Positions 4,340 to 33,465 of a DNA stretch of 37,390 bases are shown here, piece by piece. Positions within the stretch are counted from its first letter, which is position 1; each line of letters starts with the position of its first letter. Below the pieces are notes generated by a model. The model worked only from the letters and a program-made list of their open reading frames with translations, was not told the origin of the DNA and did no database searches. The position numbers and the translations under genes were made by a program. Origin of the DNA: a virus. The stretch lies in IMG/VR virus record IMGVR_UViG_3300046796_000847, positions 1 through 37,390 of that record, one strand, 5' to 3'.

Positions 4340-4560
4340 CAACTCTCCTCGCTGGCGTCGTCGACGCCGTCGGTTACGTGTTCTTCGATGACTCGGCAGT
4401 AGCCGGCCGCGCAGAGGCTGTGCATCCAGCCCCGGCCCTCGACCTTGCGGATGTAGTGCTCGCCGGCGAGAACGGGGGCGGTGCACCCCTTGCAGGAGCC
4501 GTCGCGTTTGGCGAGGATTTCCGGCCCGAGAATGGGGACGGTGAGTTCGGCCACGGTCAT
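4339..4560 (-). CDS. Small Cys-rich putative zinc-finger protein
   Basis: This encodes 73 residues. The segment C-KG-C, followed about 20 residues later by HSLCAAGYC, could form a treble-clef-like or PARP-type-like zinc site (CKGCTAPVLAGEHY, then GWMHSLC). The ATG overlaps the replication gene's TGA (ATGA), and its stop overlaps the next ATG (TGATG). It is likely made in coupled fashion right after the replication initiator. Partner and function unknown. Confidence 0.7.
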   Translation of the reverse strand: MTVAELTVPILGPEILAKRDGSCKGCTAPVLAGEHYIRKVEGRGWMHSLCAAGYCRVIEEHVTDGVDDASEES

Positions 4561-5585
4561 GCCCTCTCCAGCTCCAGGGCGGTCTCATCGACGATCTCCA
4601 GGCCGGCCTTTATGCCGGTCTTGGCCAGGGCCGCAGCGATCAGCTCGCGGTAGTCGGAGAGGATCCCGCGGCCGCTCGAGTCGACGAGGACCAGGTCGGA
4701 CCCGCGGCGGCCGACGCCCTCGAGCGGAGCGATCCACCTGTCGAAGGCCTCGGCGTCGAGCGTCTCGCGGAGGTGGGTCTTGGTTTCCTCCCAGACCTCG
4801 ATCGCAGCCTGGTCCTCCATGACCATGACCGACTCCGCTTGGCGGCGGCCTTCGAACCTCGGACCCGGCATCGCGGCGAAGCCTTCGACGTCGTCGCGGC
4901 TTTTGAAGATCCGAGCGAGGTCGTCGAAGATCGCCCCGTCGCGGTTCGCGTGCCGGCCGCGCTTCATGTGGAAGTCGGAACCGGCGCAACCGGCGATCGC
5001 GCGGCGAAGCTCGTCCTCGCTCGAGTCGGCGATGCGAGCCTTCGTCAGTCGCCGGCGTTTCGGGGTGAACTGCGTCGAGCCGTTGCGACCGGTCAGGCTC
5101 TTCCAAAGCTCGAAGAGCTGCTCGGGAAGATCAAGGCCGTCCCCCCCTGGGGGACTATGGGGGTTGGTTCTTGACGGTTCCTTTGACGGTTCCCTATATA
5201 GACCGGTGTCGGATTTGTCCGGTAGAACCTGCTCGGATTGTCCGGTAGAAGCGTCACTGGTGTCCGGTTGAACGCCATCTGTCTTACCGGACAAATTGGC
5301 CGGTTGATTGAGATCGAGTCGAATCCGGTCGTGAGCGCGCCCGCGCCCCTGTGTCTGGGCCGTTCGTTCGCGGGCAAGCAGCCCTTCCCCCTCGAGCAGC
5401 TTCAGGTGCCGGCGTACGGTTCGCTCGTCGCAGCTGGTGTAGTCGGCGACGTGCTTCTCCCCCGGCCAGCAGACGCCGTCCTGGTCGGCGTGATCGGCGA
5501 CTTTGAGGAGTGTGAGAAGCGGGCCTTGGCCGAGCTCGCGACCGCGGCCGATCTCCCAGGCCCACTGGGATGCCCGGACGCTCAT
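4557..5585 (-). CDS. Phage replication initiator: winged helix, Phg_2220_C-like middle, DnaA domain I-like C-terminus
   Basis: This encodes 342 residues from the ATG at 5585 (ATGA overlap). Residues about 10-80 form a winged helix typical of replication initiators (LLTLLKVADHADQDG, then DERTVRRHLKLLEGEGLL). Residues 85-150 are a flexible polar linker. Residues about 155-240 (LFELWKSLTGRNG, KRRRLTKARI) resemble the conserved C-terminal domain of phage replication proteins. Residues about 260-342 resemble domain I of DnaA: IEVWEETKTHLRETLDAEAF, then DRWIAPLEG and LVLVDSSG. DnaA domain I normally binds DnaB helicase and regulators, so this end may recruit the host helicase (inference). The linker DNA carries iteron-like repeats, as in lambda O. 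Confidence 0.85.
   Translation of the reverse strand: MSVRASQWAWEIGRGRELGQGPLLTLLKVADHADQDGVCWPGEKHVADYTSCDERTVRRHLKLLEGEGLLARERTAQTQGRGRAHDRIRLDLNQPANLSGKTDGVQPDTSDASTGQSEQVLPDKSDTGLYREPSKEPSRTNPHSPPGGDGLDLPEQLFELWKSLTGRNGSTQFTPKRRRLTKARIADSSEDELRRAIAGCAGSDFHMKRGRHANRDGAIFDDLARIFKSRDDVEGFAAMPGPRFEGRRQAESVMVMEDQAAIEVWEETKTHLRETLDAEAFDRWIAPLEGVGRRGSDLVLVDSSGRGILSDYRELIAAALAKTGIKAGLEIVDETALELERA
5171..5308. other. Putative phage replication origin: iterons inside the initiator gene
   Basis: The core TTGTCCGGTAGAA is at 5215-5227 and 5238-5250. Variants are TGTCCGGTTGAA at 5261-5272, the inverted TTACCGGACAAATT at 5284-5297, and TTGGCCGGTTGAT at 5296-5308. Next to them, TTGACGGTTCC is repeated directly at 5171-5181 and 5183-5193, followed by an AT-rich CCTATATAG at 5193-5201. 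The first two cores are read in different codon frames, so the conservation is at the DNA level. An origin inside the initiator gene is the lambdoid arrangement. Function is inferred. Confidence 0.65.
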
Positions 5586-10313: not shown

Positions 10314-11330
10314 CTAGTGGTAGTACGGCGAAGCGATTCCGGCCTTGAAGGCCGCCAGGGCGCTCGGCGAGGTCGAGACGATCCAGTCCATGCCGGCCGC
10401 GTCAGCGACGTCGTTGAACCAGGAGAAGGCGACGATCTGCGGACGCGAGGGTAGGTAGGTGCCCAGGAACTCGGTGATCCAGGCCGCCTTGTCGCCGCCG
10501 TGCTCGGTGCAGCCCGTCTCGTTGATGATCACCGGCTTGCCGGGTGCGATCTGGGCGAGGCGGGTGAGCGTCGGGTCGAAGACTTCGGCGGGCGTCTGCC
10601 AGCGGTAGGGCTTGGCCGAGCCGACGCCCCAGTTGTAGGCGTCGATTCCGACGTAGTCGACGAACTCGGTGCCGGGGTAGTAGGGCGCAGGATCGGCGGC
10701 GGGCTCGTAGATCCCGTTGACGGCCCAGACGAACTTGATGTTCGTGGCGCCTTTCGCGCGCAGCCGGTCGGCCAGGTGACGCCAGGCCGCGATGTAGTCG
10801 GCCTTGCGGCTCCAGGCATACCAGGTGCCGTTCATCTCCCAGCCCGGGACGAGCAGGACCTCGCCCTTGAACGCGACGGCCTGGGCGGCGATGTTGTCGA
10901 TCGCGGCGTCCTTCAGCCCGGCGACGATTTCCCCGGTCGGGAAGGTCGTCTCGACCAGCGAAGTCGCTCCCCGCGCCGCGACCAGGCGCAGGGCGTTCAG
11001 GTCAAGAGCGCCGAAGGGCTGGCCGAAGGCGCAGAGGGAGACTTTCTTACCGGCGTCGGACTCGAAGCGATCCCAGACCGGCGCTTCCCAGGGCGCATCG
11101 TGTTCGGAGCCGTAGGCGCTGCCGTCCATGCGGGCGCCCCAGCGGATGCTCGCCGTGGGTGGAGGCGGCGCAGGCGCTGGCGGCGACGTTTCCAGGATCG
11201 TCCGCGCTTCACGCACCTTCGACTTGCCAGCCGCGAGCGCCTTCGCCGAGCTTGTGCTGCCCTTCTTGACTTCGACCTTCGCGAGTTCGGCGAGAGCGCC
11301 GCTGAGGAGATCCGTGGGGTTGGCGGCCAT
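10314..11330 (-). CDS. GH26-like glycoside hydrolase in the lysis cluster
   Basis: This encodes 338 residues from the ATG at 11330 (TGATG overlap with the endolysin stop). Residues 1-50 are helical, 50-60 a Pro-rich linker, and 62-338 a TIM-barrel-type hydrolase. The acid/base motif WEMNGTWYAWS (E165) and the nucleophile IINETG (E271) match family GH26 or close clan GH-A relatives, usually endo-mannanases or related glycanases. There is no signal peptide. It may be a virion enzyme or a co-lysin attacking host surface polysaccharide after holin action. A second GH26-like domain sits in the baseplate fusion. The substrate cannot be told from sequence. Confidence 0.8.
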   Translation of the reverse strand: MAANPTDLLSGALAELAKVEVKKGSTSSAKALAAGKSKVREARTILETSPPAPAPPPPTASIRWGARMDGSAYGSEHDAPWEAPVWDRFESDAGKKVSLCAFGQPFGALDLNALRLVAARGATSLVETTFPTGEIVAGLKDAAIDNIAAQAVAFKGEVLLVPGWEMNGTWYAWSRKADYIAAWRHLADRLRAKGATNIKFVWAVNGIYEPAADPAPYYPGTEFVDYVGIDAYNWGVGSAKPYRWQTPAEVFDPTLTRLAQIAPGKPVIINETGCTEHGGDKAAWITEFLGTYLPSRPQIVAFSWFNDVADAAGMDWIVSTSPSALAAFKAGIASPYYH

Positions 11331-12160
11331 CAGACGTAGCTGAAGAAGCGGTAGTCGCCGTCGCCGAAGAGGTCGATGACGCCGGCGTCGACGGGTGCCG
11401 AGCCGTGGCCGATGGTCTTGTCGCCGGGGCCGACGAACATCTCGACGTGGTGACCGGCGCCGGAGCCGTAGATCACGGCATCGCCGGGCTTCAACTCCGA
11501 GCGGCTGATCTCCCGGCCGTTGGCGACGAGCGTGCCGGTATACCCGGCCGTGAAGCGTTCGCCGTTCGGGTCCGAGGCACCCGCCGAGTGATAGGCCGAG
11601 GCGAACCAGCTCGAGCAGTCGTCGCGGTGACCGTAGGCGGGACCCGTGATGCAGTGATTGGCGTCGAAGGCGCCAGTCTGCGAGTAGAAGTTGGGCCGGT
11701 GACCCGAGGCGCAATTCGCAGCGGAGGCGAGAGCGGCAGCCTTCAGTCGCTCATGGATGCTCCCTCCACTTACCTTGTCGCCCTCGATCGAAACGTGCTC
11801 GAGCTTCTTCAGATCGGCGAGGTAGCCCGCCTGTCTGGCTTCAAGGCCGTTGATCCGCTGCGTCAGTGCCTTTACCCGGCCGAGCCAGAACTGAGCCCGC
11901 GAATGGTTCTTGAAGGCGATGTGGCCATAGCGGAGAGCGCGTTTGTCTTCCCGCAGCGCCTTTCGTTCGCGGGCCGTTCCGTAATACCGGTAGGTCTGAC
12001 GGGCCCCGTCGGCTGCCTTCTGCGCCTTCACCTGCTGGTTGTGGGCTTTGAAGGCTCGCTTGCGGTTCGCCTTGTAGCGGCGCTGGGCGCGAGCCAGGAG
12101 CGGCTTGTTGAGGCCGAGCTTTTCTGCGACCTGCGCGAGCAGGCCCTTGATGTGGGACAT
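11330..12160 (-). CDS. NlpC/P60-type endolysin with N-terminal coiled coil
   Basis: This encodes 276 residues. The first 120 are very basic and helical (RAQRRYKANRKRAFKAHNQQ, later RVKALTQRINGLEARQ), probably a coiled coil or wall-binding stalk. The C-terminal half is an NlpC/P60 papain-like fold: nucleophile C182 in HRDDCSSWFASAYHS, H237/H238 in GSGAGHHVEMFVG, and a third polar site in TIGHGS. KPGDAVIYG matches the usual K-x-G-D-x-V strand. Such enzymes cut peptidoglycan peptides. The start is supported by AGGAGG just upstream of the ATG. It heads the lysis cluster. Confidence 0.85.
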   Translation of the reverse strand: MSHIKGLLAQVAEKLGLNKPLLARAQRRYKANRKRAFKAHNQQVKAQKAADGARQTYRYYGTARERKALREDKRALRYGHIAFKNHSRAQFWLGRVKALTQRINGLEARQAGYLADLKKLEHVSIEGDKVSGGSIHERLKAAALASAANCASGHRPNFYSQTGAFDANHCITGPAYGHRDDCSSWFASAYHSAGASDPNGERFTAGYTGTLVANGREISRSELKPGDAVIYGSGAGHHVEMFVGPGDKTIGHGSAPVDAGVIDLFGDGDYRFFSYV

Positions 12161-13040: not shown

Positions 13041-13550
13041 ATGAGCCGGGCACTACTACTAGCCGGGGTGATGCTGGCGGCGGCCGCTGGATCAGCTCAG
13101 GCGGACACTACGATCACCTGCGAACCCTGCTCTCGCCCCTATCAGCGGTGGGTCGATGAAGCGCGGGTGCCGACGCCGGATATGATGCTCGCCGTAATCG
13201 AAGCGCCCTGCCCCTATCTGACCGAGGTCGGAGCTTGCACCGCGGCTGGGACTGACACGATCTGGTTCTCGACCTCGCGCCGTCAGGTCTTCTACCACGA
13301 GCTAGGCCACAACTTCGATTGGTACGTGCTGCCCGAATGGGCGCGGGTGCGCTACCTCGCGATCCTCGACCTTGCGGGGCCGTGGGAACAACCCGAAGCG
13401 GGGCATCAGTCGCCCAATGAGCTCTTCGCCGAGTCCTACGCCTTCTGCGCGATGCAGCCGGTCACGCATGGCGGCGGCGTGGCAGGGCAGGTGCCTGTCG
13501 GCGGTTGGCGCGTACACAATCGCGTCTGCCGCCTGATCGGGCGCCTCTAG
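13041..13550 (+). CDS. Secreted zinc metalloprotease-like protein, plus-strand moron
   Basis: This encodes 169 residues. The signal peptide is residues 1-21 (LLLAGVMLAAAAGSAQA). The zincin motif H86-E-L-G-H90 lies in FYHELGHNFDW, and a downstream Glu-rich helix, NELFAESYAFC (E127 or E131), could supply the third zinc ligand, as in gluzincins. Six or more cysteines (27, 30, 57, 66, 136 and near the end) suggest disulfides in an exported protein. AGGAGAG lies directly before the ATG. It is the only plus-strand gene inside the leftward late region, and its stop codon overlaps the tail-fibre gene's stop at CTAG. It could be expressed from the prophage and act outside the cell. Substrate unknown. 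Confidence 0.8.
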   Translation: MSRALLLAGVMLAAAAGSAQADTTITCEPCSRPYQRWVDEARVPTPDMMLAVIEAPCPYLTEVGACTAAGTDTIWFSTSRRQVFYHELGHNFDWYVLPEWARVRYLAILDLAGPWEQPEAGHQSPNELFAESYAFCAMQPVTHGGGVAGQVPVGGWRVHNRVCRLIGRL

Positions 13551-14767: not shown

Positions 14768-15934
14768 CTATTCGACCGTGACGGTGAGCGTTTTCGGCGT
14801 CGTGAGCGGTGCCAGTCCGGTGAGGGCCAGGTCTTTGGCTTCTTTGGAGCCGCCGGCTTTCGCCAGTTTCAGCGAGACGACCCGGCCGACGCCCTGCACC
14901 CGGTCAACCTCGGAGATCAGCTCGTTGAGGTAGACCGTCGCGGTGTTCACCCAACCCGTCGAGGACGGATCTCCGACGGTCGGCAGGCCCCAGTTCGCGG
15001 GATCGAGGTACGCGGAGAGTCGGGCTTCGATGGCCGCTTTGACCGCTTCGGGGTCGAACCCCGGGAGGACGGTCGCTTTGGCTTCGATGTCGACTTCGGT
15101 GATAGTCGGATCGCCGACGAAGTTGAGGACACCGCTCGGGACCTTGGCCTCCTGACGTTCCTGCAGGACTTCCTTCGTCGGCGTCGAGAGTTTCGCCCCG
15201 GCTGCGCCCACCGCAATGACGGTGACGGCGAGGGCTTCTTCTTTCGCTTTTTCTCCATTCCACGCGGGGATGCAGAGGGCCCGGGCGACTCCTGCCACGG
15301 CCCGAGCGTCGATCTCGAAATCACGCGGGACGATCAGCGAGAGCGAGAGAAGCTGAAGCTCCTGAATCAGCCGGTCAAGGTAGGCGTCTTCGTCCTCTTC
15401 GTCCACGCCGCCCGACGTTTCGCCGAGCAGGGCGACCGATTCCACGAAGGCGACGGCGGAGATCGGTTCGGGGGTGGCGGAGAGGCCGTTGCCTTCCACG
15501 CCCGGTTCGATCGCTTCGAGGACGACCTCGCCCGCTTTGGTCGTGGTGGCGCCGGGCGCGACCGTCACATCGGAGACGACGCGGAAGCCGAAGGATTCAT
15601 CACCCGTCCCAGCGATGCTGACTTCGGTCCCGGCGGGAATCGTGTAACCGGCGTTGTCGACCATCGTCCAAGTGGTCAGTGCGGTGGCCGGCGCCGCCAG
15701 GATCGGCGGCACGTTGGCGATCGTCTCGCCGAACTTCTTGAACATCGCTGCGGAGGTGACCGCGGCCTGGTCGCGGACGGTGGAGGCGATGCGGGCGAAG
15801 GCTTTGGTCAGCCAGGTCTCGAGATCGCCCTCGGCAGGTTCCCAGTCTTCGAACTGGGCCTCGATCGCTTCGATGACCTCCTGCTCGAGGGCGGCCGGGT
15901 CGTTGTCAATGAGCGCCTCGGTGAAGGTGGTCAC
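14768..15934 (-). CDS. Baseplate J-like wedge protein
   Basis: This encodes 388 residues from a GTG at 15934 (GTGA overlap). It has the features of the P2 gpJ / Mu gp47 family: a helical start, then TIPAGTEVSIAGTGDESFGF, the VVLEAIEPGVEGNGL segment (family G-x-x-G-N), DEDAYLDRLIQEL, RDFEIDARAVAGVARALCIP, and a C-terminal SEVDRVQGVGRVVSL. This protein forms the arms of the contractile-tail baseplate. With the sheath gene it shows that the phage has a contractile tail. Confidence 0.9.
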   Translation of the reverse strand: MTTFTEALIDNDPAALEQEVIEAIEAQFEDWEPAEGDLETWLTKAFARIASTVRDQAAVTSAAMFKKFGETIANVPPILAAPATALTTWTMVDNAGYTIPAGTEVSIAGTGDESFGFRVVSDVTVAPGATTTKAGEVVLEAIEPGVEGNGLSATPEPISAVAFVESVALLGETSGGVDEEDEDAYLDRLIQELQLLSLSLIVPRDFEIDARAVAGVARALCIPAWNGEKAKEEALAVTVIAVGAAGAKLSTPTKEVLQERQEAKVPSGVLNFVGDPTITEVDIEAKATVLPGFDPEAVKAAIEARLSAYLDPANWGLPTVGDPSSTGWVNTATVYLNELISEVDRVQGVGRVVSLKLAKAGGSKEAKDLALTGLAPLTTPKTLTVTVE

Positions 15935-16263
15935 GCTGCCTCCGGTCTCAGGGTCACGTCCAACTCGCCGAGCTCGCCCAGCCGCGCCTCACCGATCAGA
16001 TGCGCTCTCGGCTCCCACTTCGCGACTGCAGTGAGATAGGCCTCAGCGCTCGGGTTCGGCGGCAATTGCTCGAAGGTCGGATCTACCAATCCGTATTCGG
16101 GCTCCTCGATCCGCGAGCCGACTGGGGTGCGCAGGACCGCCTCGACGCATTGCTCGATCTCCTCGGCGGAGTCCTGCTCGACCTGGGCGACGATGCCGTC
16201 GACGACGCGGAACGGATGCTTGAGATGGGGCGCCTTCAGTTTGGAGACCCATCGAGCTGACAT
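15931..16263 (-). CDS. Possible internal translation product: free gp25-like wedge protein
   Basis: This in-frame 110-residue product would start at the ATG at 16263 (MSARW), preceded by AGGAAGG at good spacing inside the fusion gene. The length is close to that of stand-alone gp25/gpW proteins (about 110-140 residues). A wedge assembly needing gp25 copies without the bulky N-terminal enzyme would explain such a site. Sequence-supported but not proven. Confidence 0.4.
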   Translation of the reverse strand: MSARWVSKLKAPHLKHPFRVVDGIVAQVEQDSAEEIEQCVEAVLRTPVGSRIEEPEYGLVDPTFEQLPPNPSAEAYLTAVAKWEPRAHLIGEARLGELGELDVTLRPEAA

Positions 16264-17874
16264 GGATGAGCCTTCCTGCGGCTCACCGGGCAACGGCACT
16301 TTCAGTGCGTCGGCGAAGCTCGCGACAGGGGGATCGAGGTAATAGGGGTCTTCGAGTGCTTCCTTGACCGCTGCGGTGGCGGATTCGCTTGACTCGATCG
16401 CCCAGTCCGCTCGCCCTTTCGTGTGTTCGATGTACCAGTTGAACAAGACCAGCGCCCGGACGTTGGGCATTTCGAAGGGCAGCGTCCACTGGAGAAACTG
16501 CCGGAGCCATTCGGCCTTGTGCGGCGGTTCGGGTCCCGCTTTCGTGAACCACTCAGAGCAAGCAACCTCGCAGATGATCTGCGGCTTGGTCGGGCATTTT
16601 TCGACCAGCCGTTCATAGGTTTCGAGGAAGACGGCCTGGCTCGTGCGCCAGCCCAGCGGGACGGCAGGATTCTGGCCGTTGTAGCCGTCGAACCCGACCC
16701 AATCCACGTATTCGTCGCCCGGATACATATTGCCCGCTTCCCCGGTGAAGGGGTCCGTTTCGGGCGTCGGAGCGAAGAGGATGTTCGGACACCAGACGAA
16801 GGTGACGTTGTGGGCGATCGAGGAGACGATCCCGTGCACTCGCCGCCACGCTTCGACGTATTCGGCCCCGGTCACGTAGGTCATCCCCCACGGGAACCCT
16901 TCCCGCAGGTTCATCTCCCACCAGAGCCGCAGGTAGAACGGGTGCCCCCAGTCGCGGGCCTCTTTGGCCCATGCGGTGATCCCGTCGTCGTAGACCTCGG
17001 CATTGACGTCCTGAATGACGTTGGCCGGACCGCCGAGGGACTTCATCGGGATCGCGCCGCGGGCGTGGATGCGGTCGCTGGCGCCCGCGAAGAAGCCATC
17101 CCAGACCGGGCCTGTGCCTGCTTCCCAGGGGTCGCCCATGTGGACGATCCCCACTTTGCGCCCGGCGTCCGCCTCGAACTGGTCCCAGAGCGGTTCGTTG
17201 ATGGGGGCCGGTTCGCAGGGGCCCGAGGCTTCCGTTTCGGCTATGTCTGCGCCCCAGTAACGGGGGAGCTGCGTCGGCGGCGGGTCCGGTTCGACGCCGA
17301 CCCAGGAGTTGTCAGTCGAGCCCTGGTCGTCGTTAATCGCCAGACCGTCGATGAGAATGGGAGTGCCGGATTTGACCCCGCCCGGGTTGCCGAAACGGGC
17401 CTTGTTGATCCCCAGGTTGCCGACCGCGAATGCCTGTTCGGCGGCCTTCTGGACGCCGTTGAAGCGCCAGGAGATCAGGCCGTTTCCTTCGGCGTTGATC
17501 TGGCACAGGACCTCGGCTACGAACCATTCACCAGCCGTGATTTTCGGCGGGGTTTCCGTCGGATGCGCGACCCCGTTCCACATCCGCAGTTCGCCGGCTT
17601 CGTTGATCGAGAGTTCGAGCTTCGTCGCTTCGCCGTTGAGAAGCCGCAGGATCGCCGTCGTGTTTTCGGGCAGTTTGGCGAGCTTGCCAGCGACCCGGTA
17701 GAGGTATTTTCGACCGAGGACGCCAGCCGGGTGAACCTCCACGACGTTGAAGGCGCCCGAGGCACAGGCCGCGCTCGCGGCGCCGGCCCACGGGTTAGTC
17801 GCTTCTTCAACGACTGAGCCGACCGTGGGCGTCGTGATCGGCCAGAAGTCGAAGTTCTCCGACGCGAGACGCAT
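15931..17874 (-). CDS. Lectin-like + GH26-like + gp25-like baseplate fusion protein
   Basis: This encodes 647 residues. Residues about 1-195 are a LamG/concanavalin-like jelly roll (RKYLYRVAGKLAKLP, ELRMWNGV, GEWFVAEVLCQINAEG). Residues about 205-505 are a GH26-like barrel, with acid/base E320 in LRLWWEMN and nucleophile E436 in IICEVACSEW. Residues about 538-647 match the GPW/gp25 baseplate wedge family (FRVVDGIVAQVEQDSAEEIE, then VLRTPVGSR and EPEYGLVDP). So a surface-glycan enzyme is fused to a core baseplate subunit. An internal Shine-Dalgarno (AGGAAGG, 7 bases before the ATG at 16263) could also yield free gp25-like protein. The enzyme may degrade envelope glycan at attachment. Confidence 0.85.
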   Translation of the reverse strand: MRLASENFDFWPITTPTVGSVVEEATNPWAGAASAACASGAFNVVEVHPAGVLGRKYLYRVAGKLAKLPENTTAILRLLNGEATKLELSINEAGELRMWNGVAHPTETPPKITAGEWFVAEVLCQINAEGNGLISWRFNGVQKAAEQAFAVGNLGINKARFGNPGGVKSGTPILIDGLAINDDQGSTDNSWVGVEPDPPPTQLPRYWGADIAETEASGPCEPAPINEPLWDQFEADAGRKVGIVHMGDPWEAGTGPVWDGFFAGASDRIHARGAIPMKSLGGPANVIQDVNAEVYDDGITAWAKEARDWGHPFYLRLWWEMNLREGFPWGMTYVTGAEYVEAWRRVHGIVSSIAHNVTFVWCPNILFAPTPETDPFTGEAGNMYPGDEYVDWVGFDGYNGQNPAVPLGWRTSQAVFLETYERLVEKCPTKPQIICEVACSEWFTKAGPEPPHKAEWLRQFLQWTLPFEMPNVRALVLFNWYIEHTKGRADWAIESSESATAAVKEALEDPYYLDPPVASFADALKVPLPGEPQEGSSMSARWVSKLKAPHLKHPFRVVDGIVAQVEQDSAEEIEQCVEAVLRTPVGSRIEEPEYGLVDPTFEQLPPNPSAEAYLTAVAKWEPRAHLIGEARLGELGELDVTLRPEAA

Positions 17875-23691: not shown

Positions 23692-25110
23692 CTACAGCGC
23701 CTCCTTGACCACTTCGATTTCCACCCGCTCGGCCGAGGGGCTCATCTTCACCGCGAGGATCGCCCGCAGCTTGCCTTCGCCGATCGTCGTGTCGGTGTTG
23801 ACCTGATCGCCCGTCTCGACCGTGAAGGCGTCTTCGGGGGTGTCCCCGAACAGCGCTTCCTGATCGAAGAGAGGCAGCAGCACCTCGCCGACCAGATCGC
23901 CGTTGAACTTGGCGATCTCATGCGTCGTGATCTGCGCGAACAGGTGGCGCTCGGCGATGGCTTCCGCCCGAGAGCAGATCGCCATGTTGAGCCGGGCGTT
24001 CGACAACTGCAGCCAGGTCGTGTCGACCAGGGGATTGATCAGCGTGACGTTGTCGTAGGGGCGCGGGACGCTATTCAACTCCCGGATCACGTTGACGCCC
24101 GCTTCGGAGAGCACGCCGCGGTTTTCGCCTGACCACGGCACTTGCGAGACGTCCGTGCAGTAGCGAGCGAGGTGGTTGACGCCGGCGATCGCCTCGTTGG
24201 GGTTGCCCCCTTCGCCGTCGTTCCGAGCTGCCAGCCCGGCCATCAACGCACAGGGCGGCACCGTCCGGGTCGTGCCCGGGGTGACGCCGGGAATGACGAC
24301 CCACGGGGCGAAGAGGCCGCCGTAGCGGGCGGTGGCTTCCGCCCGCAGGGTCGACGCCTGCGAGGTCAGAGTGGCGACCGTTGCCGTGTCAGTGCCGTCC
24401 AACAGCGCGACCCGGTTCTTCGCTTTCGCGTGAGCCAGGATCGCTTTCTGGGCTTCGGCCGAGGTCCGGCCGGGCGAGGAGACCTGGCCCGGCCCGAGGT
24501 GTGCCGAGAACAGCGCCAGCGCCGCTTCGTGCTGGGTCTCGGTGATGTTTTCCCGATCGTCGGTTCCCGAGGCCAGCGTTTTCGTCGCTGCGGCGGGGTT
24601 ACCTTTGCCGAGGTCGACAAGGCGGATGTAGGGAGAGTTCGCGAAGTAGGCAACGGCCTCGGCGTTGCTTGCGAACCCGGCGTGTTCGTCGACGACGACG
24701 CCGCCGAGTTTGACGACCGCCTTGAATTTCGCGCTTTCTGTCGTGGTGATGAATTCGAGGCCATTCGCCCAGGAGCCATCCGAGGTGGCGTTGATCGTCA
24801 GCGTGTTTTCGGAGCTGCCGTTTTTCGCCGTGATCGTCGCGAGTGCAGCCGCCGGCCCACCTTCGCGGACGACGTACAGACGGCTGCCGCCCTCTTCGAA
24901 GAAGGTCTGAGCGGCGTCATAGAGCGTGGTCCCACCCGAGCGCGCACCGAGGTGAGCCACATAGGACACCATGTTGAGGATCAGGACGGGTTCATTGATC
25001 GGCCCTTTTTCGCTCTGGCCGGTGACGAACCATGTGCCGGTATCGGTCGGGGGCGACGAAGATGGCGCGACTGACCCCGATGTGACGGTTATTCCAGGTG
25101 TAGTGGTCAT
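23692..25110 (-). CDS. Contractile tail sheath protein
   Basis: This encodes 472 residues. Sheath-type features are an N-terminal extended strand (TPGITVTSGSVAPSS), then GTWFVTGQSEKGPINEPVLI and LYDAAQTFFEEGGSRLYVVR, a central beta domain, APWVVIPG, and a conserved-looking C-terminal half (NVIRELNSVPRPYDNVTLIN, then FGDTPEDAFTVETG) ending in a strand that would hook the next subunit. It shows the phage is a myovirus. ATGA overlap with the small gene before it. Confidence 0.95.
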   Translation of the reverse strand: MTTTPGITVTSGSVAPSSSPPTDTGTWFVTGQSEKGPINEPVLILNMVSYVAHLGARSGGTTLYDAAQTFFEEGGSRLYVVREGGPAAALATITAKNGSSENTLTINATSDGSWANGLEFITTTESAKFKAVVKLGGVVVDEHAGFASNAEAVAYFANSPYIRLVDLGKGNPAAATKTLASGTDDRENITETQHEAALALFSAHLGPGQVSSPGRTSAEAQKAILAHAKAKNRVALLDGTDTATVATLTSQASTLRAEATARYGGLFAPWVVIPGVTPGTTRTVPPCALMAGLAARNDGEGGNPNEAIAGVNHLARYCTDVSQVPWSGENRGVLSEAGVNVIRELNSVPRPYDNVTLINPLVDTTWLQLSNARLNMAICSRAEAIAERHLFAQITTHEIAKFNGDLVGEVLLPLFDQEALFGDTPEDAFTVETGDQVNTDTTIGEGKLRAILAVKMSPSAERVEIEVVKEAL

Positions 25111-25904: not shown

Positions 25905-26362
25905 CCGAGCCGCCCGTGGACGATCCAGTCCGCGACGAGATCGAGGATCTCCTCCTCCTCGCCCGTAGTCACGCCGGTCAGTTCGCGCCGGGGCTCTCCC
26001 CCTCGCGTACCGCGGGTGAAGACCGAGTACCAGATGTTGACTCCGGCTCGAGCAGTGGTTTTGGTCGCACCGGAGCGTTTCCCCTTGCCGCCAGTGGCAG
26101 CGGCCTCGAGGGCGCCGGTCTTGCCATGCAACGGGCGGGGGTCGATTCCTTCGCGGCTCTTGCGATCGAGGGTGGCCTGTGCTAGCGGTGCCCATGGCGC
26201 GTCGATGGAGCCGCCCTCGCTCTCGAAGGCCTTGCGGTTGAACCCCAGGAACAGCTCGCGGACTTTGCGGGTGGCGGGACGGGCGTCGAGGGCCCGGGCG
26301 CGCATCTCCGCGATGTTCGCCAAGACCTTCTCGTCTCCTTCGACCTGAGTATCGACCCTCAC
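25901..26362 (-). CDS. Phage virion morphogenesis protein (Mu gpG / P2 gpS-like)
   Basis: This encodes 153 residues from a GTG at 26362. The segment NRKAFESEGGSIDAPWAPLA, then LDRKSREG, PLHGKTGAL and WYSVFTRGT is typical of the gpS/gpG-like tail completion family, which has G-x-W-x-P-L followed by a hydrophobic K-T-G-x-L turn. It acts at the head-tail junction. GTGA overlap with the upstream stop. Confidence 0.8.
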   Translation of the reverse strand: MRVDTQVEGDEKVLANIAEMRARALDARPATRKVRELFLGFNRKAFESEGGSIDAPWAPLAQATLDRKSREGIDPRPLHGKTGALEAAATGGKGKRSGATKTTARAGVNIWYSVFTRGTRGGEPRRELTGVTTGEEEEILDLVADWIVHGRLG

Positions 26363-27081
26363 GGGAGAAGCTCAGAGGTCGTGAGCAGACCGGCGCCAGC
26401 GACATCCGAGCGCACGCGCAGCGAATACAACCCCTGCTTGGTGGCGCTGGTGTCGGGCAGTGCCTGGATCAGCGAGGCCATGCCCGACTCGAAGAGTTTT
26501 TGCAGGTTGTCATAGGCAGACTGTTCGCTATTGGTCTGCTCGGGGAAGTAGGAGAGCTCCACTCCCATCGCCGCTCGGATCGCCGCCAGCTCACGGGCGT
26601 AGGACTCGAGGTCGTCCGAGGGCAGTTCATCCGTGCCCAGCCGCGCTCCAATCTCAGTGACGGCCCGGCCGACGAGAAGCTGCACCTGGCCTTTGGTGGG
26701 CCTGGTGGTTTCCGAGAACACTCCGCTCTCGGTCCCCATGTCCTGCGTGCGGGCTCGAAGGATCGCCGCTACATCCGCAGTCGTCGGGCGCCAATCAACC
26801 CCGGAACCGTCGTCATAGGCCGGGTCGGTGGGAGGCGACTGGTTTTCGTCGGCGTCGAGGAAGGTGAGCCGAAAGAACGCCTCCGCGACTTCACTGGCGA
26901 AGGTGACATCACGCTTCTGTGGATCGTTCGGGTCGGTGTCGACCGGGCTCAGGGAGAGGGTCGGGTCGGCCGTCCAGGGGCCGTCCTCATTCACAGAGTG
27001 TTCTGGGCGGACCTGAGTCCAAGGGACCCCGTCGATCCTGCGCGGCGGCCGGGCATCGAGAAGGGTGTGAATGACGCTCAT
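26359..27081 (-). CDS. Head-tail connector / adaptor protein candidate
   Basis: This encodes 240 residues. The C-terminal two thirds are helical: TTADVAAILRARTQ, then GQVQLLVGRAVTEIGARLGT, LESYARELAAIRAAMGVELS and NLQKLFESGMASLIQALP. This matches the all-helical pattern of gp6/gp15-type head-tail adaptors. The N-terminus is extended and Pro/Asp-rich. It lies just before the tail completion gene. The assignment is by pattern and position. Confidence 0.65.
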   Translation of the reverse strand: MSVIHTLLDARPPRRIDGVPWTQVRPEHSVNEDGPWTADPTLSLSPVDTDPNDPQKRDVTFASEVAEAFFRLTFLDADENQSPPTDPAYDDGSGVDWRPTTADVAAILRARTQDMGTESGVFSETTRPTKGQVQLLVGRAVTEIGARLGTDELPSDDLESYARELAAIRAAMGVELSYFPEQTNSEQSAYDNLQKLFESGMASLIQALPDTSATKQGLYSLRVRSDVAGAGLLTTSELLP

Positions 27082-28109
27082 ACGAAGCTCATTTCTCCTG
27101 GTTTGCCGGCCGTCTCCGGGGTTGGGTCTCCGGTCGTCTCGGAGGCCGGGGTTCCCGTGTCCCCTCGCTGGAACTTGCCCCTGTGTGCCGGCCCGGTCCC
27201 GACCAGCGTCACCGCGTGGCTGACACCGATGAGGGCGAGAACACCGGCGACCGTGGCGGTGTGGATCTGCTGCTCATCCGGTTCACCGTCGAGAGCCAGC
27301 GTCCCCGCTGCGGCGTCCACGAAGCCCTCGGCGTCGACCGCGTCGCCAGTGAGGACGATCAGGCCCGAAGGGGCGAAGTGGTGACGGAATGCCTCCTGCA
27401 GCGCGCCCGTGAGGAACAGTGTCCCACCGGGGGCGACTTTGCCCAGCAGTTCCCAGAAGTCGGCAGAGAGGCCGCGAAGTTCGAGGGTGCCAGCCGGGGC
27501 GATGGTGCCGATGCGCTTGTCGGTGCTCGCGCCCGAGAGCGAGATCGTCCCGCTGGGCGCGGCAGTGTGGATGAGGATGCTCGGAGCTGAGCCGGTGAGG
27601 GCCAGTGTGCCGGTTGGTGAAGAGGTGCCGAAGAGCGCCTCGGCCGTCTGGCGGCCACCGAGCAAGGTCATGGGGCCGAGCAGCGTCCCCGGCCCGAGGA
27701 GCAGCGACGTTTCGGTCAGGACCAGCGTGCCGGAGCACACGTCGGCGTAGATGTGGCCCCACGTCTCCGTGACGGAGCCGCCGAGGGTGGCCGATCCGGC
27801 CGGAGTCTCCGATCCGATGCGGGCGTCGGCGCTCGACCCGCTGAGCGCCAGTGGTCCAGCCGGGGAAGCCGTCTGGATGCGCGCCTCGGTGCTGGTGCCG
27901 CTCAGGGTCACCGTCCCGGCACCGACGTCGGCGCCTTTCCTGGCCTCGGTGAACGAGCCGGAAAGCGTGAGCGAGCCGGTGCCGGTATCGAAGCCGACCC
28001 GCGCCTCGGCCGCGGCACCGCTGAGGGTGATCGTTCCGCTACCGGTGTCCGTGTAGGTGACCTGGCCATGCAGCACCTGCACGAAATGGCGCGTCGATGG
28101 CGCTGGCAT
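27078..28109 (-). CDS. 20-residue-repeat structural protein (candidate head decoration fibre)
   Basis: This encodes 343 residues. From residue 21 to about 305 it is built of about 13 repeats of mostly 20 residues, with core x-x-G-T-L-x-L-S/T-G then a variable polar half (for example GTITLSGAAAEARVGF, GTVTLSGTSTEARIQT, GTISLSGASTDKRIGT). The first four and several later repeats are exactly 20 residues; one (123-162) is a degenerate double. Regular short beta strands suggest a beta-solenoid or strand stack. The C-terminus is Pro/Thr-rich and ends with a polar tail. It is encoded among head-side genes, so a surface fibre is likely. Function unknown. Confidence 0.75.
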   Translation of the reverse strand: MPAPSTRHFVQVLHGQVTYTDTGSGTITLSGAAAEARVGFDTGTGSLTLSGSFTEARKGADVGAGTVTLSGTSTEARIQTASPAGPLALSGSSADARIGSETPAGSATLGGSVTETWGHIYADVCSGTLVLTETSLLLGPGTLLGPMTLLGGRQTAEALFGTSSPTGTLALTGSAPSILIHTAAPSGTISLSGASTDKRIGTIAPAGTLELRGLSADFWELLGKVAPGGTLFLTGALQEAFRHHFAPSGLIVLTGDAVDAEGFVDAAAGTLALDGEPDEQQIHTATVAGVLALIGVSHAVTLVGTGPAHRGKFQRGDTGTPASETTGDPTPETAGKPGEMSFV

Positions 28110-28657
28110 TAGAAGCCGCTAGCGGTTCGGGTTAGCCCACACAGTGGGTAGATCAAGCCTTCGTATTTGGCCGGGGTTCCAGAGGTCGGAAGTTCAAGCG
28201 AGCTGGCCTGCTGGGTCATTCCGGCGATGCGGCCCTGGATCGCGGTGATCGCCATTGAGTTTGCTTGATTTGCCGTGGTTGCGGAATGGGCCAAGCTGAA
28301 GATGTAGGAGCCGGGATTCAGCAGCATCTCCGTCACCGAGCCATACTGAATGGCGGTGTTGCCAGACCCCGCGACTTTGCCTGTCGCCCCGAGTAGCTCA
28401 TACCCCGCCGTCAAGATCCCCGCGTTCCATTCCCCGCCTGCCGCTGAGCCATTCGCCCAGAAAAGCCGTCGCACCGGCATGGGGTGCGGGAGAGAGAACG
28501 GAATGTTGATCGCGAGGTTGGCCGTCGGCCAGGCACCTGACACAGGATTGGACACGACGAAGGCAACCCAGCGACCCTCGGAGGTCGGGAAGTAGCCGCC
28601 CATGAACGAGGAGATATGCGTCGGCAGCGGCTCGCTCGCGTTGGGCCAATCGCTCAT
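28109..28657 (-). CDS. Structural protein, paralogue of the next upstream gene
   Basis: This encodes 182 residues from the ATG at 28657 (TGATG overlap). Beta-rich, with NLAINIPFSLPHPMPVRRLF, NGSAAGGEWNAGILTAG, LLNPGSYIFSLAHSATTANQ, SLELPTSGTPAKYEGLIYPL. The upstream neighbour has the same order of motifs (N-A-x-x-x-P-F, then N-G-x-x-x-x-G, L-x-P-G-x-Y, T-P-A near the end) and also starts MSDW. It is probably a virion surface or decoration protein with a jelly-roll-like fold. Confidence 0.65.
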   Translation of the reverse strand: MSDWPNASEPLPTHISSFMGGYFPTSEGRWVAFVVSNPVSGAWPTANLAINIPFSLPHPMPVRRLFWANGSAAGGEWNAGILTAGYELLGATGKVAGSGNTAIQYGSVTEMLLNPGSYIFSLAHSATTANQANSMAITAIQGRIAGMTQQASSLELPTSGTPAKYEGLIYPLCGLTRTASGF

Positions 28658-29199
28658 CAGAAGACCGCCGAGTCGGAGAGTGAAAAACCGAAGACCGGGA
28701 TATAGGCGGAAGCCGGGTTCGCGGGGGTAGCGGTCGTGGGGATTTCGACTTCCGCGCCGAGCGCCTGCTGCTGGACGCCGGCCGCCTGTAGGCGTATGGC
28801 GCTTGTGACGCCGCGAAAGTAAGTTGCTTCGGTCGAGGTTGCCGTAAAGCCGCCGTAGTAGAGGCCGGGCATCAACAGCGTGTCGGTGAGGTCGAGAAGT
28901 TGAAGGGCGCTGGTCCCCGACTGCGCGGTCAGTCCTTTGTTGACCAACCGATTCCAAGAAGCGTCGAGGATCGCTATATCGAGTTTGCCTTTTTCGACTG
29001 TGCCGTTGTAGGCGAATGCCTGCGTGACCGTCACCGGGGTGTCGATCAAGAAGGGGAAATACAGCGCCCGGTTGGCGGCCGGGTAGACGGCCGAGGCCGA
29101 CTGTTCCACCATATCCAGGGAGCCATAGAGCGCACCCGCACCGGGGAGGATCACCTGGCGCGGCACCGAGCGGAGAAGGGCTGTCGCCCAATCGCTCAT
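28657..29199 (-). CDS. Structural protein, paralogue of the next downstream gene
   Basis: This encodes 180 residues from the ATG at 29199 (ATGA overlap); the frame opens a few codons further but without support. Motifs: NRALYFPFLIDTPVTVTQAF, AYNGTVEKGKLDIAILD, LLMPGLYYGGFTATSTEATY, EVEIPTTATPANPASAYIPV. Motif order matches the downstream gene, indicating tandem duplication and divergence. It is a likely surface protein of the head. Confidence 0.65.
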   Translation of the reverse strand: MSDWATALLRSVPRQVILPGAGALYGSLDMVEQSASAVYPAANRALYFPFLIDTPVTVTQAFAYNGTVEKGKLDIAILDASWNRLVNKGLTAQSGTSALQLLDLTDTLLMPGLYYGGFTATSTEATYFRGVTSAIRLQAAGVQQQALGAEVEIPTTATPANPASAYIPVFGFSLSDSAVF

Positions 29200-29544: not shown

Positions 29545-29937
29545 TCAGCCTTCCGCGCCGGGTGCCGGCGCCTCCTCCTCGGCCTCCTCTGACGCCACCT
29601 CTTCCTCGGGAGCTGGCTCTAGCTCGGCAATGCGCTTTTGCGCCGCCTCGAGTGCCCCTTCCAGCGCAGCGACACGAGAGTTCGCCTCGCCGAGGAGCTG
29701 GTAGATATCGGGAATCAGGGAGATCGAAGTCCGATGCCATCGGCTGAGCAACGGATGCTCGGCATGGGCGGCCATCATCTCGGGCAGGGGAATCCCGTTG
29801 ATCTCGGCGTAGCTGTGTACGCCCTCCTCCCCATCGGCGGGCGCCGGAACCTCTAGACGCGGATCGGCGCCGCCTTGCTCCACTGCTTCCCGCTCAGCTC
29901 GTCGCTTTGCCTTTTCCTGCTCGCCTGCGCTGTCCAT
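29545..29937 (-). CDS. Coiled-coil, acidic-tailed hypothetical protein
   Basis: This encodes 130 residues from the ATG at 29937; AAGGA lies 5 bases before it (a TTG one codon upstream is less good). The charged N-terminus is followed by SLIPDIYQLLGEANSRVAAL and a leucine-rich coiled coil (EGALEAAQKRIAELE), then an acidic Glu/Ala/Pro tail. It may be an assembly helper or linker for the neighbouring surface proteins. Function unknown. Confidence 0.6.
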   Translation of the reverse strand: MDSAGEQEKAKRRAEREAVEQGGADPRLEVPAPADGEEGVHSYAEINGIPLPEMMAAHAEHPLLSRWHRTSISLIPDIYQLLGEANSRVAALEGALEAAQKRIAELEPAPEEEVASEEAEEEAPAPGAEG

Positions 29938-29955
29938 CAAGTTCCTTTCGTTCCC

Positions 29956-31209
29956 CTAGGAGAAGAGTCCGAGGGCATTGAGCGCACCCCAAATGCCTTC
30001 GGCCGTTTTGGCGACCCCGGTCTGTTTGGCGACGGGTGCGGTGCCGTAGAAGCCGACGCCGCCGCCAAATTTGATGTCGGCTTTGGAATTGGCCCGTCCG
30101 AGGTGAAAGGTCCCGGCGGCGGGTGCGTTCAGGACACCGTCACCTGCTGCGCTTTCCAGCATGAACTGGCCCGCCACGCCCACCTGACCGAGCTTCCAGC
30201 TAGTAGTCGCGTTGGCGAACATCACGGAGTAGCTGGCGTTCCCCCCAGCGTTGAACTTGACCAACGGGTCGCGGACGGAGCCGCCACTATTGATCTCAAG
30301 AAGCTGCGAGGTCGTGGAGGTGAGGGCCGAGGCACCGAGGACGACAGCGCCGGCCATTTTGGCGACCTTGACCGCGAGCCCTCCTGCGGGTCGTTCGCCG
30401 CGGATATCGAGGCTGACGAGCGAGGAGGAATCGTCGCGGATCGAGGAGTCCCTGACCGATTTCGCGTTGAAGCCGACGCCGACTGCCCATTCCTCGCCAG
30501 TGACGCCACCGAATTGCAGGCCAGCCGCCGCGTCTGAACCAAGCGGCGAGTCGCAGTTGAGGTAGATCCCCATTACATCCGAGGGGCCATTGGCGACATA
30601 GGTGCCGTTGACCAACGTGTTGTTGCGAGCGCGGACCTCGAGTGCGTTGACGATGGCGGTCGTCACATCTCGGGTGCCCTCAATATAGGCGCCGATCGCG
30701 GTGGCGGTTGCGCCTTCGCCGCCGACGTGTCCCTTGAAGTAGCCGCCGCAGGCATCATGGCCGAAGGGTGCGGCTTTCGAGCGGCTGAAGACCCCGCCAT
30801 AGACGCCGACCGACTGGACCTCACTGGTCGACAAGGCGACCGCCTGGCCCGAGATCGCGGCCATCGAGTCTGGGCCGTCGGTCCCGACTAGTCCCTCAGC
30901 AGCTTCGACGGTCGCTTTGCGCGCGTCGTCGGTGCGGCTTACCTTGAGGGTGTTCCCGGCGACATTGACGGGTTCGGCTTGGCTACCGTGCCGGATATCG
31001 AGTCGCAGCGGATCAGGGGGCGAGGAGAGCCGAGAGCTTACGTTGTCGCCCGCCGACCAGTCGGCGCCCTTGTCGATGAGATCGAGCCTCGACGAGTGTG
31101 AGTCGAGTGCGCCGCCGACCGCAGTAAGCGTCGCGTTGAACCGCGAAGCGGTGAGCGGCGTCGTGGGATCAAGCTCATTCCACGGCGCGGAGGGGTCCGC
31201 GAATGCCAT
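29956..31209 (-). CDS. Large fibre-like structural protein among head genes
   Basis: This encodes 417 residues. The N-terminal segment (PWNELDPTTPLTASRFNATL) resembles fibre attachment ends; a helix and then a long beta/Gly-rich body follow (VQSVGVYGGVFSRSKAAPFG, AIGAYIEGTRDVTTAIVNAL, VVLGASALTSTTSQLLEIN). The C-terminus repeats LG-x-A-N-S/FYG-type turns as in fibre tips. It is encoded between capsid and connector rather than in the tail block, so it may decorate the head. It could also be a tail fibre encoded out of place. Confidence 0.6.
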   Translation of the reverse strand: MAFADPSAPWNELDPTTPLTASRFNATLTAVGGALDSHSSRLDLIDKGADWSAGDNVSSRLSSPPDPLRLDIRHGSQAEPVNVAGNTLKVSRTDDARKATVEAAEGLVGTDGPDSMAAISGQAVALSTSEVQSVGVYGGVFSRSKAAPFGHDACGGYFKGHVGGEGATATAIGAYIEGTRDVTTAIVNALEVRARNNTLVNGTYVANGPSDVMGIYLNCDSPLGSDAAAGLQFGGVTGEEWAVGVGFNAKSVRDSSIRDDSSSLVSLDIRGERPAGGLAVKVAKMAGAVVLGASALTSTTSQLLEINSGGSVRDPLVKFNAGGNASYSVMFANATTSWKLGQVGVAGQFMLESAAGDGVLNAPAAGTFHLGRANSKADIKFGGGVGFYGTAPVAKQTGVAKTAEGIWGALNALGLFS

Positions 31210-31213
31210 GCGG

Positions 31214-31624
31214 CTAGGTGAGGGTCAGGGAGGGTGTGACCTGCTCGGTCGTCGAGGCCTGCGAGAGGTCGCGGGCGCCGCCGCCGGCCTGAAGATTCCA
31301 GGCGCAGATCGCCTTGCCGGAGTTATCGGCAGACGTCACCAAGATGATCGACTTGACCGAGGCGGGCCAGTCGGTGTGCGCTTCGGTTTTCCATTCCATC
31401 TGGGCGAAGCTGACGACGCCGCTCACGGCGGTCGGCTCGGCCTGGCTCTGCCGGGCATAGCCGGTACCGGTGATCTCACCGACGCCGCCGGCGAGGGTGT
31501 CTTCCGCTTTGAGAGTGCCGGAGCCTGAGCAGGGCTTCGTCGAGAGCAGGAAGCGACAGGTGGCGGGCAGGCCGTTGTTGATGAGCTCGGTCTTGCCCTC
31601 GTTGAAGTCGATGAAGTCAGCCAT
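31214..31624 (-). CDS. Minor structural protein candidate
   Basis: This encodes 136 residues, beta-rich: MADFIDFNEGKTELINNGLP, ATCRFLLSTKPCSGSGTL, GVVSFAQMEWKTEAHTDW, KSIILVTSADNSGKAICAWN. I have seen similar short sequences annotated as phage minor structural proteins, but this is memory only. It lies in the surface-protein module. Confidence 0.6.
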   Translation of the reverse strand: MADFIDFNEGKTELINNGLPATCRFLLSTKPCSGSGTLKAEDTLAGGVGEITGTGYARQSQAEPTAVSGVVSFAQMEWKTEAHTDWPASVKSIILVTSADNSGKAICAWNLQAGGGARDLSQASTTEQVTPSLTLT

Positions 31625-32511: not shown

Positions 32512-33465
32512 TCAGGTCTTCAGCAGGGTCGCCGCCGGGTAGCGGGTCGCGGCGGTTTCGTTGTCGTAGTTGATCGTGTTGGCGGTTTCCCAGCCAGCAC
32601 GGAACACGACGCGCATCGCGACCATGTCCTGCTGCGCCAGGTTGTAGACGATGGCGCCAGTGTTGTCCTGGATCACCGCCTGGTCGAGCAGTTTGAAGGT
32701 GATGTCCTGGCGGACACCGACCACCTGCTCGGAGGGATCGCCGGCGATCGCCTCGACCGGATGTTCCCCCGCCGTCGGCCAGAGTCCACGCATCGGATAC
32801 TGAACCGTGATGCCGTGGATGCTCTGCTGGTTGACCTGGCCGTCCTGCGGCTCGATCAACGACTCGCCCGTGGTGGCGCGTGCCTGGCGGAGCAGCCCTT
32901 TGTAGGCCCGGGTGGCGATCACCCAGTCGACGTCATAGCCGTCGGCCTCCACCTTCCCGAAGGTGTCGGAGAAGTCACCGACGATCCCGCCCGCTTTGGC
33001 TTCGTTGGCACCGCGGGTGATCGTGTTGGACGATTCCGAGCACGCCGTGGTGATGTCTTTCGGCCACGAGGCGGGTTTGTTGGTCCCGAAGAACACGGCC
33101 GCGTCGAGGGTCCGTCCGATGGCGTTCACCATCAGCGGCTGGACCTCTGCCCAGATGTCGTAGGCGACATCGTCCAGCACCGCCTCGGGGATCGGCACGA
33201 TGCATGCGATCTCCTCGACGTTGAGGTACTTGTTGGTCCAGTTGACCTCGGTCGTGGTCTTTAGGCCCGTGTCGCCATTGACGAAACCGGCGATCGGCAG
33301 GGCCGCGAGGACCGGGAAGCGCTCCTGGTTGCGGGAAATCGGAACGCGGGTGAAGCTCTTGAGGACAGCCGACTCGCTGTCCAACTTCTTGAGGAGGGCG
33401 TTGGAAACCTCCTCCGGCACCAGTGCCTGGGCATCGGTGCGCCCGATGTCGTTGTTGTAAGCCAT
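32512..33465 (-). CDS. Major capsid protein (HK97 fold)
   Basis: This encodes 317 residues. It has the features of HK97-type major capsid proteins: an N-terminal ALVPEEVSNALLKKLDSESA segment, AALPIAGFVNGDTG (E-loop region), then VPIPEAVLDDVAYDIWAEVQ (spine helix), TLDAAVFFGTNKP, YDVDWVIATRAYKGLLRQAR and a C-terminal VRQDITFKLLDQAVIQD and MVAMRVVFRAGW. It is preceded by scaffold and portal genes. AAGGAG sits 9 bases upstream of the ATG. No N-terminal protease or delta domain is attached. Confidence 0.95.
   Translation of the reverse strand: MAYNNDIGRTDAQALVPEEVSNALLKKLDSESAVLKSFTRVPISRNQERFPVLAALPIAGFVNGDTGLKTTTEVNWTNKYLNVEEIACIVPIPEAVLDDVAYDIWAEVQPLMVNAIGRTLDAAVFFGTNKPASWPKDITTACSESSNTITRGANEAKAGGIVGDFSDTFGKVEADGYDVDWVIATRAYKGLLRQARATTGESLIEPQDGQVNQQSIHGITVQYPMRGLWPTAGEHPVEAIAGDPSEQVVGVRQDITFKLLDQAVIQDNTGAIVYNLAQQDMVAMRVVFRAGWETANTINYDNETAATRYPAATLLKT

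What the first reader, a model, noticed from the sequence alone, without database searches (positions are those of the whole stretch)
27078..28109. Head-side protein made of about thirteen 20-residue beta repeats
Repeats are mostly exactly 20 residues with core G-T-L-x-L-S-G and a variable polar second half. I know no characterised phage protein with this layout. It is encoded beside a duplicated pair and a large fibre-like protein, suggesting a head surface structure with variable loops.
Basis: partly seen in the sequence, partly recalled or inferred. Interest (0 to 1): 0.65.

Follow-up and report, generated by a model that had tools for sequence, protein, structure and literature searches.

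The report
Phage fibre-cassette protein, 20-residue repeats
A virus of bacteria carries a protein made of fourteen similar beta-strand repeats, which most likely serves as a rope or stalk for fibres at the virus's neck, a building plan that recurs unannotated in many unrelated viruses of bacteria.

Summary
The 343-aa protein at 27078-28109 (-) has 14 core motifs G-x-hydrophobic-x-L-x-G, 9 of 13 spacings exactly 20 residues, far beyond shuffles. It matches no Pfam, PHROG or PDB family. The phage has a contractile tail. The gene lies in a variable cassette between a small gene (g87) and the head-tail adaptor gene. One close relative has a homologue there, another has an unrelated 18-residue repeat protein, and others have no cassette. 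Adaptors next to a cassette carry about 100 extra N-terminal residues; adaptors without one do not. Conversely, genes just upstream of Gp77 homologues show about 20-residue periodicity in 5 of 13 phages, against 1 of 92 other genes. Best reading: a neck or tail fibre component, probably a rope or stalk like the (recalled) rope protein of GP4 fibre I. Sequence homology to that system is not shown. 'Head surface structure' is only partly supported. The structure model is all-beta but of low confidence.

The parts
27078..28109 (-). Repeat protein REP, 343 aa, 14 units of about 20 residues, low-complexity polar C-terminus (about residues 305-343)
   Evidence: homologue L003:16162-17238
26359..27081 (-). 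Head-tail adaptor, 240 aa: about 102-aa N-terminal extension plus C-terminal helical bundle; its start overlaps the REP stop (ATGA)
28109..28657 (-). Duplicated pair, second copy, 182 aa; its stop overlaps the REP start (TAATG)
28657..29199 (-). Duplicated pair, first copy, 180 aa
   Evidence: no tblastn match in the phage collection
29196..29543 (-). 115-aa cassette protein, function unknown
   Evidence: weak phrog_16194 tail protein, E 0.053
29545..29940 (-). 131-aa cassette protein, function unknown
29956..31209 (-). 417-aa fibre-like protein; its first 31 residues are shared with a different cassette protein of L003
   Evidence: 64.5% identity over 31 residues, E 1e-8
31214..31624 (-). g136, possible Gp80-like small fibre protein (below the curated cut-off)
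   Evidence: Pfam PF23140 E 0.012, 16.3 bits against cut-off 27; 96% identical in L003
31637..31900 (-). g87, conserved small protein that bounds the cassette on the head side
32512..33465 (-). Major capsid protein (context)
   Evidence: phrog_10 E 3e-39
23692..25110 (-). Tail sheath (context: contractile tail)
   Evidence: phrog_23 E 2e-33

Best explanation
REP is a structural part of a virion fibre complex encoded by an exchangeable fibre cassette, most likely attached at the neck (head-tail junction) of a contractile-tailed phage. I think it works like the 'rope' of podophage GP4 fibre I: an extended polypeptide whose 20-residue units each give a short beta strand (G-T-L-x-L-S-G) that either docks a small partner protein (candidate: g136) or stacks into a beta stalk, with the complex held at the neck through the extra N-terminal part of the adjacent adaptor. 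Shown: repeats, position, cassette variability, adaptor extension that goes with the cassette, recurrent neighbourhood. Inferred: presence in the virion, attachment at the neck, rope or stalk role. Guess: one partner per repeat.
For: (1) The place between g87 and the adaptor holds about 5 kb in L003, 2.4 kb in L007, 3.4 kb in L005/L010, and nothing in L004 and L006 (46 and 49 bases from g87 to the conserved adaptor core); L018 and L020 also lack an insert there. (2) The adaptor core is preceded by 102-109 residues in window, L003, L007, L005/L010, and by about 2-18 in L004, L006, L018, L020. (3) REP and adaptor overlap by ATGA in window; the same overlap lies in the L003 and L007 coordinates. 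(4) 116 of 119 loci from a capped pattern scan translate to the motif pair. Downstream genes: 7 of 35 match Gp77, against 0 of 49 upstream genes, which include Laminin_G_3, Gly_rich_2, Peptidase_S74, Collar and tail assembly chaperone. (5) Reverse test from Gp77: 5 of 13 upstream genes periodic against 1 of 92 others, Fisher p 7.5e-5. (6) Burkholderia phage BcepIL02 gp55 (Gp80, E 2e-33), gp56 (lag-20 repeats, 0 of 300 shuffles) and gp57 (Gp77, E 6e-22) are consecutive and labelled virion-associated in the record. (7) Same kind of order, beta-helix-like gene then repeat gene then adaptor, in L041 and in podovirus ct9yY11. (8) The model is all-beta.
Against: No sequence homology between REP and BcepIL02 gp56 (hhalign probability under 1%) or between the adaptor extension and Gp77 (0.3%; no Pfam hit). 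g136 against Gp80 is marginal: 1.6% for the window pair, 24% for a wider set, Pfam below cut-off. Mass spectrometry of JC1 virions detected the Gp80 and Gp77 homologues (gp53, gp55) but not the homologue of the repeat protein, gp54 (PMC9144972, passages). The model is weak (pLDDT 50.7), and Foldseek finds nothing at E <= 0.001. Eight of 13 genes upstream of Gp77 fall below z 5. In Pan4, Mel-JY03 and vB_MoxS-R1 such repeats sit in the tail-fibre end of the genome, not the head end. The GP4 rope itself is recalled, not read.
Confidence: 0.45

Rival explanations
1. REP is itself the shaft of a fibre: its units stack into a beta-solenoid or, as a trimer, a beta-prism, with no bead proteins. It would be a stalk carrying or linking the receptor-binding cassette proteins.
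For: All-beta model with one or two strands per unit; such repeats are fused behind enzyme or fibre domains in other phages (Gly_rich_2 in Pan4; a record-labelled glycerophosphodiesterase in vB_MoxS-R1); the best, non-significant BFVD matches include a Gordonia minor tail protein and a Microbacterium phage glycerophosphodiesterase.
Against: Low confidence (pLDDT 22-68 by block); units of 18, 20 and 22 residues mix in one protein, which is awkward for a strict solenoid; no solenoid match at E <= 0.001.
Confidence: 0.3
2. Head decoration or head fibre: REP lies on the capsid surface.
For: Encoded on the head side of the adaptor gene, downstream of capsid, scaffold and portal genes.
Against: Relatives with capsid proteins 71-76% identical lack the whole cassette (L004, L006); repeat genes elsewhere sit with tail-fibre and fibre-tail-adaptor genes; the adaptor extension follows the cassette.
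Confidence: 0.13
3. REP is a host-binding adhesin whose variable half-repeats contact the cell surface; gain and loss of units tunes binding.
For: Unit number varies (4 in L111, 7 in L026, 10-11 in L003 and L041, 14 here, 23 in L127); the cassette is variable like receptor-binding regions.
Against: Conserved, simple core with small residues; other cassette genes (417-aa protein here; a beta-helix-like protein in L003) look more like receptor-binding parts; nothing tests binding.
Confidence: 0.08
4. Not a real gene: a shadow of a GC-rich overlapping frame.
For: The region has many overlapping open frames.
Against: Homologue in L003 with E 8.5e-68 in the same place; overlapping start and stop with both neighbours; extreme periodicity.
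Confidence: 0.01

Closest known systems
L003:16162-17238 (IMGVR_UViG_3300046543_000574)
   Same: Same place upstream of the adaptor, about 44-50% identity, similar C-terminus, same 20-residue motif
   Different: 358 aa, about 10 clear core motifs, more LLLGxxTLLG stretches; other cassette genes differ
Burkholderia phage BcepIL02 gp56 and BcepMigl gp57
   Same: About 20-residue repeats, between Gp80 and Gp77 genes, record-labelled virion-associated; the two differ by gaps of about whole units
   Different: Core is A-x-[LM]-x-L, not G-T-L-x-L-S-G; no detectable homology to REP
Rope protein of podophage GP4 fibre I (Zheng 2023, J Mol Biol 435:168258; contents recalled, paper not read, seen only in a reference list)
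   Same: Recalled: elongated protein linking beads of gp80, held by a fibre-tail adaptor round the neck; expected gene place matches
   Different: Its sequence was not found in the collections used; a podophage, not a contractile-tailed phage
Pseudanabaena phage Pan4 gp26
   Same: 20-residue-type GTLxLTG repeats, 31% identity over 80% of REP, E 3e-6
   Different: Repeats follow a Gly_rich_2 tail-fibre domain; encoded in the distal tail-fibre region
Podovirus ct9yY11 UOF78774 and viral-contig protein L041:3237-4250
   Same: Repeat gene directly before a tail/adaptor gene and after a beta-helix or pectate-lyase-like gene
   Different: 22-residue units in ct9yY11; unrelated phages

Membership tests
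GP4-type fibre I complex (Gp80 beads, rope, Gp77 fibre-tail adaptor) | Gp80-family protein (PF23140) in the cassette | tested here: inconclusive
   g136: Pfam E 0.012, 16.3 bits against cut-off 27; hhalign probability 1.6% (window pair) and 24% (six-member set, E 8.6e-4)
GP4-type fibre I complex (Gp80 beads, rope, Gp77 fibre-tail adaptor) | Gp77-family domain (PF23148) next to the repeat gene | tested here: not met
   Adaptor extension of the window: no Pfam or PHROG hit at E <= 1; hhalign 0.3%. Only the position agrees
GP4-type fibre I complex (Gp80 beads, rope, Gp77 fibre-tail adaptor) | Protein of about 20-residue repeats between the two genes | tested here: met
   Layout only: REP lies between g136 and the adaptor. 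Sequence homology to BcepIL02 gp56 not found
GP4-type fibre I complex (Gp80 beads, rope, Gp77 fibre-tail adaptor) | Chain of beads round the neck in the virion | not testable with these tools
   Needs cryo-EM
Capsid decoration protein | Kept together with its capsid protein in relatives | tested here: not met
   MCP 71-76% identical in L004 and L006 without REP or cassette
Known tail-fibre or tailspike families of Pfam/PHROGs | Profile match | tested here: not met
   No Pfam hit above cut-off, no PHROG hit at E <= 1
Known beta-solenoid folds | Structural match | tested here: inconclusive
   Low-confidence model; best PDB E 0.044, none <= 0.001

The most novel reading that the evidence does not exclude
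REP belongs to a widespread, unnamed class of phage rope proteins: each 20-residue unit donates a beta strand that clamps one small bead protein, so the number of units sets the number of beads, and this contractile phage has built the podophage-type neck fibre into its own neck by fusing the fibre anchor to the head-tail adaptor.
Probability: 0.25. Interest if true: 0.75.

Novelty: new variant of a known kind. Interest (0 to 1): 0.5.

Why it matters
Fibre cassettes decide which cells a phage can stick to, and their parts are mostly unannotated. If the reading holds, one simple periodic signature (about 20 residues, G-T-L-x-L-S-G or similar), together with a small Ig-like neighbour or an extended adaptor, would mark neck-fibre scaffolds in many phages across tail types, and would give a testable rule linking repeat number to fibre composition.

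Tried and rejected
Close-relative search with REP alone in viral contigs found none; the two-member alignment found only the L003 contig. Genome-contig scans with REP and with the sheath found no relative, so no host or prophage is known. PDB sequence searches with REP (0 hits), Pan4 gp26, L117 repeats and BcepMigl gp57 gave nothing relevant. The AlphaFold model of the adaptor has no usable N-terminus (pLDDT 23-36 over residues 1-90), so the fold of the extension is untested. tblastn of g136, g187, the L003 homologue, the L007 repeat protein and the L041 repeat protein in the phage collection gave no match. Text searches for a rope protein, for GP4 with rope, for fibre-tail adaptor wording and for '20-residue repeats' in phages gave no usable paper, within an open-access library that lacks most subscription papers.

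Limits of the counts. For one search I used 32 of the 36 loci with at least three motif spacings of 18-22: L043, L059, L061 (cyanophage-type, large or cut neighbours) and L088 (no downstream gene) were left out, and window, L003 and Pan4 were added. Several loci are near copies (L030/L074/L097; L056/L076; L115/L096/L027), so 7 of 35 is fewer independent cases. The 49 upstream genes are a chosen subset of those listed. For one search I took 13 of 67 records; BcepIL02, BcepMigl, CSP3 and JC1 are one genus. In BcepMigl the gene next to Gp77 is a pectin lyase and the repeat gene is one further away; its own lag-20 signal was reached by 13 of 300 shuffles. For Atu_ph08 I used an unannotated frame by analogy with PBC5, and for Nicholasp3 I skipped a 56-aa gene. 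PBC5 (z 4.5, 0 of 400 shuffles) counts as a miss. The single hit among the 92 other genes (Mae-JY22) also lies in that phage's stretch upstream of Gp77. That most downstream neighbours are Ig-like is my reading of the sequences, not a test.

Full report
What is there. The window is a 37,390-base virus record, linear in IMG/VR terms. Read on the minus strand it runs terminase, portal, scaffold, major capsid protein, small genes, a fibre-like cassette, head-tail adaptor, neck protein, tail sheath, tube, tape measure and baseplate, so it is a contractile-tailed phage. Its portal is related (under 60% identity) to those of phages of actinobacteria, but no host was found.

The repeats. REP (27078-28109, -) has 14 core motifs with spacings 20 x9, 22 x3 and 18 x1; the signal is far outside 2000 shuffles and the strongest of 31 window genes. 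G1, L5 and G7 of the unit are nearly fixed, while the second half drifts. Units share on average 46% of their bases and 31% of their residues, so this is an old array and not a recent tandem expansion. The gene overlaps its neighbours at both ends (TAATG and ATGA).

Relatives and the cassette. Only one close relative carries a homologue (L003). It sits in the same place, after a 413-aa protein that I read by eye as beta-helix-like (no Pfam match). L007 holds at this place a 647-aa protein whose C-terminus has 18-residue repeats of the type A-D-S-L-x-L-S-E; L005/L010 hold a 628-aa protein with weak periodicity (z 2.4); L004 and L006 have no gene here, and L018 and L020 have no insert between capsid and adaptor. 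The adaptor core is the same in all, but 102-109 extra N-terminal residues precede it only where a cassette is present. L018 has an earlier possible start that would give 43 residues. L005 and L010 look like the same phage, so this is about four cases against four.

The wider class. Many of the encoded proteins are long arrays: 23 motifs in L127, 10-11 in L041, 4 in L111. The most REP-like are L003, L127 and L041. In L041 the order is beta-helix-like protein, repeat protein, then a 313-aa protein with a weak head-tail connector match in its C-terminal half (E 0.068) and extra N-terminal sequence. In podovirus ct9yY11 the order is pectate lyase, two small genes, repeat protein, then a gene matching the tail family phrog_394 (E 4e-49), in a phage unrelated in tail type. 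In L102 it is a lectin-like protein, repeat protein, Gp77 homologue, tail protein. In L030 and L071 the repeat gene ends a cassette with a Gly-rich gene and, in both, a tail assembly gene (L071; L030 read).

The GP4 lead. Pfam names Gp77 and Gp80 after podophage GP4 (fibre-tail adaptor and fibre I). I recall from the abstract of Zheng 2023 that fibre I consists of gp80 dimers linked by an elongated rope protein and held on a 15-fold fibre-tail adaptor; I could not read that paper, and saw only its title in a reference list and one citing sentence. Gp77 was found in 7 of 35 genes that follow repeat genes and in 0 of 49 that precede them. Turning the test round, 5 of 13 genes immediately before a Gp77 homologue show 17-24-residue periodicity at z > 5, against 1 of 92 other genes, p 7.5e-5; three of these five belong to one genus. 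In BcepIL02 the three genes Gp80, 20-residue-repeat protein and Gp77 are consecutive and all labelled virion-associated. In JC1 virions, however, mass spectrometry reported the Gp80 and Gp77 homologues and not the protein between them (PMC9144972, passages).

How far this carries to the window. Layout agrees: a small protein with a marginal Gp80 match (g136), REP, and an adaptor with an N-terminal addition. Sequence does not prove it: hhalign finds no relation of REP to the BcepIL02 protein or of the adaptor extension to Gp77, and only a weak one for g136. I therefore claim 'works like', not 'is'. That REP is a virion fibre component I hold at about 0.75; the rope-or-docking mechanism, as stated in the best explanation, at 0.45.

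Structure. AlphaFold2 on seven aligned sequences gives an all-beta chain with pLDDT 61-68 over most of the first repeats and low values elsewhere (mean 50.7), with residues after 297 unordered. Foldseek finds nothing at E <= 0.001 in PDB or BFVD; the leading weak matches are beta-roll, beta-helix and uncharacterised phage proteins. This speaks against plain disorder for the repeats but does not choose between rope, solenoid and prism.

Verdict. The head-surface reading is weaker than a neck or tail-fibre reading. The finding is of moderate interest, mainly because the same periodic architecture recurs beside fibre-anchoring genes in many unrelated phages.

Noticed in passing
window 15931-17874 (-): 647-aa protein with a GH26 glycosidase domain (PF02156, E 2.7e-8, residues 297-400) and a C-terminal gp25-like baseplate wedge domain (phrog_43, E 9e-8): a glycosidase apparently built into the baseplate.
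   Followed up: partly
window 10314-11714 (-): A second GH26 protein (E 7.5e-11) beyond the tail genes.
   Followed up: no
window 13041-13550 (+): 169-aa frame on the opposite strand that looks secreted and holds an HELGH zinc-protease-like motif (read by eye).
   Followed up: no
window 3236-4588 (-): 450-aa frame with a long Ala/Asp/Val low-complexity stretch and 22-residue periodicity, z 8.5.
   Followed up: no
L007:6314-8257: At the same genomic place, a protein whose C-terminus has 18-residue A-D-S-L-x-L-S-E repeats, an apparent independent solution to the same slot.
   Followed up: partly
L127:8145-8693: A single repeat-like unit (YTGAGTITLSGAAG) at the start of a 182-aa protein among head-tail genes, in a contig that also has a 23-motif array.
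   Followed up: no
L141:1719-9395 and L145:1615-8007 (Synechococcus phages S-CAM3, S-CAM1): Giant unannotated proteins (about 2,100-2,550 aa) beside tail genes that match such repeats.
   Followed up: no
L152:744-1421 (Microcystis phage Mae-JY22): 225-aa protein of 22-residue repeats of another kind (THAHxVD...), three genes upstream of the Gp77 homologue.
   Followed up: no
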